Positions 31,357 to 33,365 of a stretch of 64,000 nucleotides of DNA are shown piece by piece. The number at the start of each line of letters is the position of its first letter. Position 1 is the first letter of the stretch. Source of the stretch: Rhodoferax sp. OV413 (GTDB lineage Bacteria > Pseudomonadota > Gammaproteobacteria > Burkholderiales > Burkholderiaceae_C); NCBI GenBank assembly GCA_945861785.1, contig CAMAWD010000009.1:57641-121640 (forward strand), given 5' to 3'. The position numbers were made by a program, and so were the translations under genes. Below the pieces are notes generated by a model that saw only the letters and a program-made list of their open reading frames with translations, was not told where the DNA came from and searched no databases.

Positions 31357-31949
31357 AGACCCTGATCGTCCACTGCCACCCGGATCCGAAGAGTTTCAAC
31401 CGCGCGTTGTACGACACGTCCTGCGCGGCCTTGCGGCAGGCGGGCAACGAGTTGCGCACCATCGACCTGTATTCAGAAGGCTTCGATCCGGTCATGAAGC
31501 GGGACGAACGCGAGTGTTACAACCTCGACCCTGCCCTGATCGAGGTCCGTGTGCAGGCCCATGTGGATGCGCTGCGCTGGGCCGAGCACCTGGTGTTCGT
31601 CTACCCGGTCTGGTTCTATGGCCCGCCGGCAATGCTCAAGGGCTGGCTGGAGCGCGTTTTCCTGCCCGGTGTGGCCTTTCTGGTGCCCTCGAAAAAGGGC
31701 GAGAAGCCCCGACCCGGCCTGCAGCATATACACCGCCTAACCATCGTCACCAGCGGTGGGTCGCCGCTGTGGTGGTTGTGGGTGGTCGGCGACCCGAACC
31801 GCCGCTTGTTTGGCCGTGCCATTCGCGCCCTGTGCGCCAAATCGTGCAAACTCACCTGGCTGCAACTGCACAACATGAACAACGTCACTCAGGACGACCG
31901 TGCCGGTTTTCTCGCACGCGTGACCCGCAAGTTGGAGGCCTTGGCATGA
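31353..31949 (+). CDS. NAD(P)H-dependent flavodoxin-fold oxidoreductase
   Basis: A 198-residue protein of the NQO/MdaB type (flavodoxin_2). MKTLIVHCHPDPKSFNRAL is the nucleotide-binding start, and FVYPVWFYGPPAMLKGWLERVFLPGVAF is the family signature around the flavin. Such enzymes reduce quinones or other acceptors with two electrons using NAD(P)H. It overlaps both neighbours by 4 nt within the catabolic operon, so it may reduce a quinone-like or nitro/azo intermediate or reoxidise a cofactor; that role is inferred. Confidence 0.87.
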   Translation: MKTLIVHCHPDPKSFNRALYDTSCAALRQAGNELRTIDLYSEGFDPVMKRDERECYNLDPALIEVRVQAHVDALRWAEHLVFVYPVWFYGPPAMLKGWLERVFLPGVAFLVPSKKGEKPRPGLQHIHRLTIVTSGGSPLWWLWVVGDPNRRLFGRAIRALCAKSCKLTWLQLHNMNNVTQDDRAGFLARVTRKLEALA

Positions 31950-32413
31950 GCAACTCACCGGCAGTCGGTGCGCCACTGGCCAACTACGCCGCCTGGCGAC
32001 GCGCCGGAGATTTCGTGTTCGCCAGCGGCGTGATTGCGGTTGACCCGGGCAGCCGGCGCGTGGTCGACACCTATGACGCGCTGGATGTGCAAGCCCGCTC
32101 GGAGCTTCGCACGCTCGGCCTGGATACTGGCCAGATGTCGGTCGATGTGTTCGAGGCTCCGATAGCTGCACAGAGCTGGTTTGTGCTGAACCGGGTTCGC
32201 GACATGGCGCGGGAATGCGGTGGTGACATGCGCGATGTGGTACGCCTGGTGCAGTACTTTCGCGACCTGCGGCACTATCCGGTCTACAACCGGGTGCGCG
32301 GCTTGTTCTTTGGCGAGCCGGTGGTCAGCACCGTGGTCGAGGTCAGCCGGATGTTGCCCGGCGACCAGGTGCTGGTGGAGGTCGAAGCCACGCTGTTCCT
32401 CCCGCAACGCTGA
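31946..32413 (+). CDS. Rid (YjgF/YER057c/UK114) family protein
   Basis: A 155-residue Rid-fold protein: FASGVIAVDPGS at the front and STVVEVSRMLPGDQVLVEVEATLFLP at the end are the family frame. RidA proteins hydrolyse reactive enamine/imine intermediates. In archetypal RidA a conserved arginine sits just before the SCVEV strand; here that place reads PVVSTVVEV, so the arginine is replaced by valine. It is therefore likely a non-archetypal Rid with another activity. It is the last gene of the operon and overlaps the previous gene by 4 nt. Confidence 0.85.
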   Translation: MSNSPAVGAPLANYAAWRRAGDFVFASGVIAVDPGSRRVVDTYDALDVQARSELRTLGLDTGQMSVDVFEAPIAAQSWFVLNRVRDMARECGGDMRDVVRLVQYFRDLRHYPVYNRVRGLFFGEPVVSTVVEVSRMLPGDQVLVEVEATLFLPQR

Positions 32414-32557
32414 ACTGCCGCTGGCGGAGTTGGAAAACCGGTGCCGACGCACATGCATCGTTTCTCCGTCGTCTTCGGTATATTTGCTATGCATCCACTT
32501 CGAGGGAAGCACGGTGCCCGCCAACATGACCAACCAGAACCCGGTTGCAAAGTGGTG

Positions 32558-32651
32558 GATCAGGCCGGCGGCGCATTCGGCTCCGCGGCTGTCCCCCGCC
32601 CTGCGGGCTCCTCCTTTATGCCGCTGCGCCGAACGCACCGCCGACCTGATC
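32558..32651 (-). repeat. Stem-arm element 1 with shared purine-rich core
   Basis: Two 24-nt arms (32558-32581 and 32628-32651) are inverted copies with 3 mismatches in DNA; in a minus-strand RNA all three become G-U pairs, so the stem would be fully paired. The space between holds a 28-nt core (32591-32618, read on the minus strand) beginning TAAAGGAGGAG. The same core recurs in element 2, 41 nt away, in the opposite orientation and with unrelated arms. Confidence 0.75.
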
Positions 32652-32692
32652 TAGCGGCTTGCTGGGAGCGTGGCACACCGAAGACGCCCGCT

Positions 32693-32784
32693 GCCGAGAG
32701 GACTGACCAGTTGTCGCGGCGAGGTAAAGGAGGAGACCGCAGGGCGGGGGACACGAGCGGCGGCAACTGGTCAGTCCTCTCGGC
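32693..32784 (+). repeat. Stem-arm element 2 with shared purine-rich core
   Basis: Two perfect 21-nt inverted arms (32693-32713, starting GCCGAGAGGACTGACC, and 32764-32784) enclose a 50-nt loop holding the 28-nt core at 32725-32752, which matches element 1 at 27 of 28 positions. Arms differ completely from those of element 1, but the design and length (92 vs 94 nt) are the same. It lies in a 469-nt gap (32414-32882) that has no gene. Confidence 0.8.
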
Positions 32785-32882
32785 TCGCCAAAAATCGGCA
32801 CCCGGTCCCTGATTTGTGTTCCCAGGCAGAGCCCCCAAACCGAACCTGCCATTGTTTTCGCAATGCCCGATAGGAGATACAC

Positions 32883-33365
32883 ATGTCGCCCGCACCAACA
32901 CCACCCGACACCGGCCAGCGCGAACTGGTCTTGACGCGCCTGATCGACGCACCGCGCGACAAGGTTTTTCGGTGCTGGACCGAACCCGCGTTGATCCTGC
33001 GCTGGTTCACGCCACCGCCCTGGCGCACAGTCCGTGCCGAGATCGACGCACGTACCGGTGGCACCAGTTGCATCGTGATGCAGGGCCCGGATGGCACTGA
33101 AATACCCAACCGCGGCGTCTACCTGGAGTTGGTCCGGAACGAACGCATCGTTTTTACCGACGCCTACACCACGCCCTGGCAGCCGTCGGCCAAACCATTC
33201 TTCACCTGCGTGTTGACGTTCGAGGACGAAGATGGCAAGACGCGTTACACCGCCCGTGCCCGCCACTGGACCGTCGAAGACTGCGTCGCACACGAGAACA
33301 TGGGTTTCCACATGGGCTGGGGCATTGCCACCGACCAGCTCGCGGAACTTGCCTCGACGTTGTGA
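32883..33365 (+). CDS. SRPBCC (AHSA1-type) domain protein
   Basis: A 160-residue protein of the START-like SRPBCC superfamily, AHSA1/CalC branch: LTRLIDAPRDKVFRCWTEPALILRWFTP is the standard start and HWTVEDCVAHENMGFHMGWGIATDQLAEL the C-terminal helix. These domains bind hydrophobic ligands; most members of this branch have no assigned reaction. GATAGGAGA lies 6 nt before the ATG. It is followed by a truncated VOC-family gene, a common partner of such proteins in Burkholderiales. Confidence 0.87.
   Translation: MSPAPTPPDTGQRELVLTRLIDAPRDKVFRCWTEPALILRWFTPPPWRTVRAEIDARTGGTSCIVMQGPDGTEIPNRGVYLELVRNERIVFTDAYTTPWQPSAKPFFTCVLTFEDEDGKTRYTARARHWTVEDCVAHENMGFHMGWGIATDQLAELASTL

What the first reader, a model, noticed from the sequence alone, without database searches (positions are those of the whole stretch)
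32558..32784. Twin 92-94 nt stem-arm elements with unrelated arms but an identical core
Element 1 (32558-32651) and element 2 (32693-32784) share a 28-nt core (27/28 identical, inverted orientation) starting TAAAGGAGGAG. Their flanking arms are unrelated between elements but are complementary within each: perfect 21 bp in element 2, and in element 1 three mismatches that all become G-U pairs in the RNA that carries the core in the sense direction. Pairing kept while sequence differs, with a constant Shine-Dalgarno-like loop, suggests a structured RNA or folded single-strand DNA element (REP-, attC- or MITE-like) that moves and re-arms itself.
Basis: seen in the sequence. Interest (0 to 1): 0.75.

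Follow-up and report, generated by a model that had tools for sequence, protein, structure and literature searches.

The report
Twin-hairpin mobile element, mismatched arms
The two hairpins are the halves of one small repeated DNA element, whose hairpins occur 72 times in this bacterium and 172 times in a Variovorax genome; the two halves share one fixed core but had different stems in every pair examined, and the element likely spreads as folded single-stranded DNA with the help of an enzyme that is still unknown.

Summary
Elements 1 and 2 are the halves (A on minus, B on plus) of one 232-bp head-to-head unit. A covariance model finds 72 halves in the host genome, 150 (a scoring cap) in one Variovorax genome, and copies in two further families, one of another order. 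In 57 aligned halves, 29 of 34 base pairs change on both sides (covariation 0.752; slid controls at most 0.136). The near-invariant core is T-AAAGGRGGAG-(hairpin, GNA-type loop)-CGGRGGACA. The G-rich strand is the one kept folded (G·T 311, A·C 105), equally in halves sense and antisense to the host operon. Arms of a pair never matched: 0 of 106 pairs, against 47% of random Variovorax arms. Orthologous sites are occupied or empty, so the unit inserts. It resembles REPINs, but no copy lies near 32 Y1/RAYT transposase loci, and Y1 was undetected in genomes with 108 and 21 copies. Most likely it is a non-autonomous mobile element acting as folded single-stranded DNA, moved by an unidentified recombinase; an RNA role is not excluded. 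No Rfam match at threshold, and no description found in the searches made.

The parts
32556..32652 (-). Half A (element 1): hairpin with its G-rich core on the minus strand
   Evidence: Covariance model match 104.5 bits; arm family A of the host genome
32591..32617 (-). Core of half A: AAAGGAGGAG, inner hairpin, CGGGGGAC
   Evidence: Pattern match without mismatch
32653..32690 (.). Linker between the outer stems of the two halves
   Evidence: Interval between the two model matches; distance between cores is 108-115 bp in the 8 host-genome doublets listed
32691..32787 (+). Half B (element 2): hairpin with its G-rich core on the plus strand
   Evidence: Covariance model match 90.1 bits; arm family B of the host genome
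32726..32752 (+). Core of half B, one base different from the core of half A
   Evidence: Pattern match without mismatch
31946..32413 (+). Upstream gene, Rid family (Pfam Ribonuc_L-PSP), ends 142 bp before the unit; context only
   Evidence: Pfam PF01042, E 2.9e-11; ORF
32883..33365 (+). Downstream gene, AHSA1 family, starts 95 bp after the unit; context only
   Evidence: Pfam PF08327, E 7.5e-30; ORF

Best explanation
The two elements are the halves of one 232-bp head-to-head unit of two hairpins that share a core but not their arms, and this unit is likely a non-autonomous mobile element that works as folded single-stranded DNA and would be moved in trans by a recombinase that is still unidentified and is probably not a Y1/RAYT transposase. 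Shown: the repeat family, presence or absence at orthologous sites, the covarying fold, the strand bias, and that each of 106 doublets joined two unlike halves. Inferred: when a strand becomes single (lagging strand or transcription bubble), the half whose G-rich strand is exposed folds; its purine core GGRGGA-hairpin-GGRGGAC is the recognition site; the unlike arms keep the two halves from annealing into one long snap-back hairpin, so each stays a separate, recognisable hairpin.
For: Covariation: 29 of 34 pairs change on both sides in 57 halves, score 0.752 against at most 0.136 for slid partners and 0.210 for shuffles. Strand: G·T 311 to A·C 105, 98 halves richer in G·T and 10 richer in A·C; core strand predicted more stable in 126 of 127 with RNA and with DNA parameters. 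The bias is the same in halves antisense (118:26, n=48) and sense (92:17, n=36) to co-directional flanking genes, so it does not belong to the host message. Hetero-pairing: 0 of 106 doublets with similar arms. Orientation: 57 head-to-head doublets to 1 tail-to-tail. Insertion: orthologous site occupied or empty in Variovorax and between pccB and pccA; dispersed copies share ends over about 255 bp. DNA rather than RNA: 76 of the 100 listed copies in one Variovorax genome have a 2-bp inner stem with a GNA loop, 75 of them GCGAAGC, which as DNA melts at 78 C (passage of PMC4686876).
Against: No mover was found, and no intact autonomous copy. No target duplication was seen (0 of 33), but the ends are fuzzy. 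Three inner loops are UUCG, GAGA and CUUG, stable tetraloops of RNA as well (stability recalled). Units sit close to stop codons (68 of 80 within 100 bp) and one is kept at pccB-pccA in 12 genomes, which would also fit a host function. Y1 transposases do occur in most loaded genomes (12 of 13; 7 of 9), so action at a distance is possible there.
Confidence: 0.55

Rival explanations
1. A structured RNA: each half is transcribed on its G-rich strand and the folded RNA acts in trans or at the ends of messages, with spread as a by-product.
For: Covarying stems; G-U and G·A pairs on one strand; UUCG, GAGA and CUUG inner loops in three halves.
Against: The strand bias is the same whether the half is sense or antisense to flanking genes, so host read-through cannot be the cause; divergent promoters in the linker were not tested for; 2-bp inner stems in one genome would be weak as RNA (recalled). 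No Rfam family at threshold.
Confidence: 0.22
2. An ordinary REPIN population moved by a Y1/RAYT transposase, with unusually long palindromes.
For: Inverted doublets of palindromes, high copy number, extragenic sites; Y1_Tnp in 12 of 13 and 7 of 9 element-bearing genomes searched.
Against: No model match within about 1.5 kb of 32 Y1 loci; Y1_Tnp not detected in G026 (21 copies) or G407 (108 copies); genomes without pattern matches also carry single Y1 genes. One host Y1 gene is flanked by a different repeat.
Confidence: 0.12
3. A host device at gene ends, such as a two-way transcription terminator or message stabiliser, spread by recombination.
For: 68 of 80 intergenic clusters lie within 100 bp of a stop codon and only 5 of 80 between divergent genes; kept at pccB-pccA in 12 genomes with compensatory changes.
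Against: The pccB-pccA gap is 12-33 bp, without the unit, in 15 of 30 relatives; copy number runs from 0 to over 150 between related genomes; a two-way device does not need one strand only to fold.
Confidence: 0.1

Closest known systems
REPINs / BIMEs (inverted doublets of REP palindromes) with RAYT transposases
   Same: Inverted doublet as the unit, many extragenic copies, compensatory changes, proposed folding of single-stranded DNA into two separate hairpins (passages of PMC3116915)
   Different: Each half is about 97 nt with an elaborate conserved core instead of a 20-40-bp palindrome; the two halves have unlike arms; no Y1 gene near 32 loci and none detected in two loaded genomes
MITEs and palindrome-bearing derivatives of IS200/IS605 (recalled)
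   Same: Short non-coding unit with inverted ends and hairpins, dispersed and inserting
   Different: No related transposase gene with the same ends found; no target duplication seen; in IS200/IS605 both end hairpins lie on one strand (recalled), here they lie on opposite strands
Intrastrand triplex repeats (TM, PMC4666352)
   Same: Abundant G-rich structured repeats in bacteria (abstract and two sections read)
   Different: The triplex motif needs three consecutive matching blocks; the core here has two GGRGGA blocks around a separate hairpin, inside a covarying duplex stem
d(GCGAAGC)-type GNA mini-hairpins
   Same: The inner hairpin has a GNA loop in 117 of 127 halves and is GCGAAGC in 75 of 100 listed copies of one genome
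   Different: Known from oligonucleotides and aptamers (passages of PMC4686876); here one part of a larger natural fold

Membership tests
REP / REPIN | Many copies in extragenic space | tested here: met
   72 halves in the host genome; 80 clusters intergenic, 11 inside a (crudely) predicted gene, 19 at locus edges
REP / REPIN | Palindromes of 20-40 bp | tested here: not met
   Each half spans 97 model positions with 34 pairs; the 20-40 bp figure is from the abstract of PMC3733652
REP / REPIN | Inverted doublets | tested here: met
   57 head-to-head, 1 tail-to-tail, 1 triple, 51 singles in 115 loci
REP / REPIN | Constant GTAG-type tetranucleotide at the foot of the palindrome | tested here: not met
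   Invariant and nearly invariant columns of A2 lie in the core and inner stem, none at the stem foot; flanks beyond the 97 positions were only looked at
REP / REPIN | RAYT (Y1) gene close to copies | tested here: not met
   0 model matches in 32 Y1 loci of up to about 1.5 kb on each side
REP / REPIN | RAYT (Y1) gene in genomes with the repeats | tested here: not met
   Y1_Tnp found in 12 of 13 and 7 of 9 genomes, but not in G026 (21 copies) and G407 (108 copies)
MITE | Terminal inverted repeats | tested here: met
   GTTCRGGGCG...CGCCCYGAAC with up to 1 substitution at both ends in 33 of 40 Variovorax loci, followed by degenerate tails
MITE | Target-site duplication | tested here: inconclusive
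   0 of 33 at the recognised ends, but similarity runs on beyond them
MITE | Transposase gene between the same ends elsewhere | tested here: inconclusive
   No transposase-like recurrent neighbour recognised in 115 loci; genome-wide search for distant half pairs not done
Rfam families | Score at or above the gathering threshold | tested here: not met
   0 matches in 8 loci at gathering; only sub-threshold matches with E-value limits
Integron attC | Conserved core sites at the ends and cassette arrays | not tested
   No search made

The most novel reading that the evidence does not exclude
A class of bacterial mobile DNA, separate from REP/RAYT and IS200/IS605, in which two hairpins with one near-universal purine core (GGRGGA-mini-hairpin-GGRGGAC, possibly a (GGA)4-type quadruplex pinned by a d(GCGAAGC)-like mini-hairpin) but obligatorily different arms form the unit of transposition, recognised by an undiscovered single-strand DNA recombinase shared across orders of Gammaproteobacteria (GTDB sense).
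Probability: 0.35. Interest if true: 0.85.

Novelty: new variant of a known kind. Interest (0 to 1): 0.62.

Why it matters
If right, much repeated intergenic DNA in Variovorax, Rhodoferax and relatives belongs to one element class with a strict design rule: same core, different arms, opposite strands. The rule would solve a difficulty of inverted doublets, which can fold on themselves as one long hairpin instead of two recognisable ones, the two folds that the REPIN authors discuss. It also says what to look for: an enzyme that binds a folded purine core, in loaded genomes that appear to have no Y1 transposase.

Tried and rejected
RAYT as mover: weakened as a general answer by non-detection in two loaded genomes and lack of adjacency (an earlier looser pattern scan is). 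Host-message element: disfavoured because the strand bias does not follow gene direction. An early count that singles lie antisense to genes (29:6:13) was dropped: many singles were doublets whose second core has a longer or shorter inner stem; the redone count is 10:4. Shine-Dalgarno role: weakened by the A/G swaps. Quadruplex: an idea from the motif only; ViennaRNA with its quadruplex option predicted none for the four typed cores, a result against it within that model. Recurrent neighbours in 115 loci: apart from ORFs overlapping the hairpins themselves, pccB/pccA orthologues; two further families near in 6 loci each were not identified. Phages: no match for one Variovorax doublet; one viral contig matched the pattern without model support. 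Variovorax megaplasmid records carry copies, but their gene tables are empty there. Pattern hits in three other families of the order were set aside as chance: the arms of two (L329, L330) were looked at and do not pair, the third (G069) was not inspected. Dropped rows: 1 of 56 halves fell to a pairing filter before alignment A2, and the short-stem class and halves with other core lengths were left out; 4 of 127 halves were left out of the strand count for weak stems; one locus (L263) had masked bases and two loose hits (L266, L269) were not checked; seven of 19 target genomes could not be placed in the alignment by their anchors (three of them, NBRC 15149, DS1452 and OV700, look empty by BLAST coordinates) and CF313 has masked bases.

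Full report
Both elements are at the stated place and their cores differ at one position. A covariance model scores them 104.5 and 90.1 bits, against 10.3 for the next match in the window (both halves are members of the alignment behind the model). They lie between a Rid-family gene and an AHSA1-family gene that point the same way.

One unit, two arm families. In the host genome the core has 62 places with up to 3 mismatches and none for the reversed control; the model finds 72 halves. The fetched copies fall into two arm families, A and B, with arms conserved within a family. Doublets are A and B head to head with 108-115 bp between cores (8 listed); single halves also occur, many of the A singles inside a larger composite repeat. 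In 115 loci from public genomes I counted 57 head-to-head doublets, 1 tail-to-tail, 1 triple and 51 singles (core plus arm-pairing filter; some singles lie at locus edges). In 40 Variovorax, 8 own and 58 public doublets none had arms with similarity 12 or more, while random arms drawn from the same sets reached it in 47%, 35% and 13% of 400 draws (copies are related, so the p-values there are not strict). The doublet therefore looks like a hetero-pair by rule.

Structure. In 57 halves (A2, nearly ungapped; 1 of 56 candidates dropped by a pairing filter, the two window halves added; short-stem class left out) 34 pairs are formed in 93.6% of cells. 29 pairs change on both sides, and the covariation score is 0.752 against at most 0.136 for slid partners and 0.210 for shuffles. 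From outside to inside: a variable 24-bp stem; an internal loop GCA/GGA (in 39 of 57 rows G·A, C-G, A·G); a 5-bp inner stem in which a tandem G·A replaces two standard pairs in 23 rows; a bulged purine; an invariant T-A pair; the purine strands AAAGGRGGA and GGRGGAC; and a terminal hairpin. The terminal stem is interchangeable (GCC/GGC 69, CCC/GGG 43, GGC/GCC 3, CGC/GCG 2, TCC/GGA 2, ACC/GGT 1; 7 imperfect) and its loop is GNA in 117 and ANA in 10 of 127 non-redundant halves. It varies from 2 bp (76 of the 100 listed of 172 copies in G244, my hand count) to 9 bp. The two R positions depend on each other: A/G 100, G/A 15, A/A 7, C/G 4, G/G 1 (Fisher p 2e-13), so the two purine strands probably touch. 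A quadruplex of the (GGA)4 type would fit the motif, but ViennaRNA predicted none.

Which strand. On the core strand the arms of 123 of 127 halves hold 311 G·T and 105 A·C mispairs; 98 halves are richer in G·T, 10 in A·C (scored symmetrically). In A2 it is 151 to 13, and G·A 83 to C·T 8. The core strand is predicted more stable in 126 of 127 with RNA and with DNA parameters. The bias is the same in halves antisense (118:26, n=48) and sense (92:17, n=36) to co-directional flanking genes (crude gene calls). The fold therefore belongs to the element, not to the host message. DNA is favoured by the 2-bp GNA mini-hairpin, which as DNA melts at 78 C (passage of PMC4686876). Single UUCG, GAGA and CUUG loops keep RNA open.

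Mobility. A Variovorax doublet with its flanks as a DNA query matched 13 to 54 times in each of 20 genomes; the dispersed matches listed mostly share ends over about 255 bp. At its own site SG517 and EL159 carry a unit, Root411, E3 and CF313 partial ones; OK212, J22G73, 110B, Root318D1 and DXTD-1 are empty; three others hold a different repeat; seven could not be aligned. Between pccB and pccA, of 30 loci chosen by PccA similarity only, 15 have a gap of 12-33 bp without the element, 2 have the doublet and 1 has one half; 11 further loci with two or three halves there had been fetched because they hold the element, one of them the same genome as one of the two, so 12 genomes in all. Arms there differ between species by compensatory changes. 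Unit ends in Variovorax are GTTCRGGGCG...CGCCCYGAAC followed by degenerate tails; no target duplication was seen (0 of 33 of 40 loci).

Distribution. Matches, host genome included: 11 of 100 relatives; 12 of 399 of the order, of which 7 in the own family, 2 in another family f21 and 3 set aside as chance; 5 of 369 of the class. Of those five, G623 and G883 belong to a family of another order, again with head-to-head pairs and the core AAAGGAGGAG...CGGGGGACA. G665 (family f105) has three weaker relatives with a changed core. All six f21 loci put to the model hold a minus-plus pair. Model counts: own 72, G407 108, G466 25, G026 21, G033 26, G245 91, G250 52, G244 150 (scoring cap), G003 0; an exact pattern gives 172 in G244. 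The distribution is patchy.

Mover. Y1_Tnp occurs in most of these genomes (12 of 13; 7 of 9) but was not detected in G026 or G407, and no model match lies in 32 Y1 loci of up to about 1.5 kb on each side. No transposase-like recurrent neighbour was recognised. The mover is unknown.

Known relatives. REPINs share the inverted doublet and the idea that two separate hairpins, rather than one long one, are what the enzyme sees (passages of PMC3116915); here the different arms would enforce that form. The element fails REP membership for size, tag, adjacency and constant presence of RAYT, so it works like a REPIN but is not filed as one. No description was found in eight library searches on repeats and hosts (listings and abstract starts seen), in passages of PMC2817692 and PMC8266576, in a word search of PMC3733652 or in two sections of PMC4666352. 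The library lacks most subscription papers.

Shown: family, fold, strand bias, hetero-pairing, presence and absence at sites, distribution. Inferred: single-stranded DNA as the acting form, the core as recognition site, the purpose of unlike arms, a non-Y1 recombinase.

Noticed in passing
L009-L049 (host genome, many contig ends): Many single A halves sit in a larger composite repeat between GGGGTCAGGTCTTG/AAGACCTGACCCC repeats and an AACGTCCGCAATGGGCCGAAAGC repeat; the first motif also flanks a host Y1_Tnp gene (L272).
   Followed up: partly
L099, L103, L108 (contig ends of two MAGs): Three halves have the same foreign sequence in place of the left arm, with three different right arms; assembly artefact or an insertion at the core edge.
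   Followed up: no
L152:6999-7096, L153 near 6219: About 19 extra nucleotides inside the left arm of two halves.
   Followed up: no
L297, L298, L303: The site that is empty or holds the doublet in other Variovorax holds a different repeat of roughly 120 bp in three genomes, suggesting a hot spot after the stop codon.
   Followed up: no
L367, L368, L369 (G665, family f105): Three hairpins in a 1.5-Mb genome with a related but changed core AAAGCGCAGGAG-GCCGAAGGC-CGACGAGC.
   Followed up: partly
L254, L255 (pccB-pccA gap): The start of pccA seems repeated around an inserted stretch of about 120 bp unrelated to this element.
   Followed up: no
L369:259-305: Acido-Lenti-1 RNA match just under its gathering score (35.5 against 37 bits).
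   Followed up: no
L114 (pccB-pccA gap): Three hairpins instead of two, the two minus-strand ones nearly alike: a recent duplication of one half.
   Followed up: no
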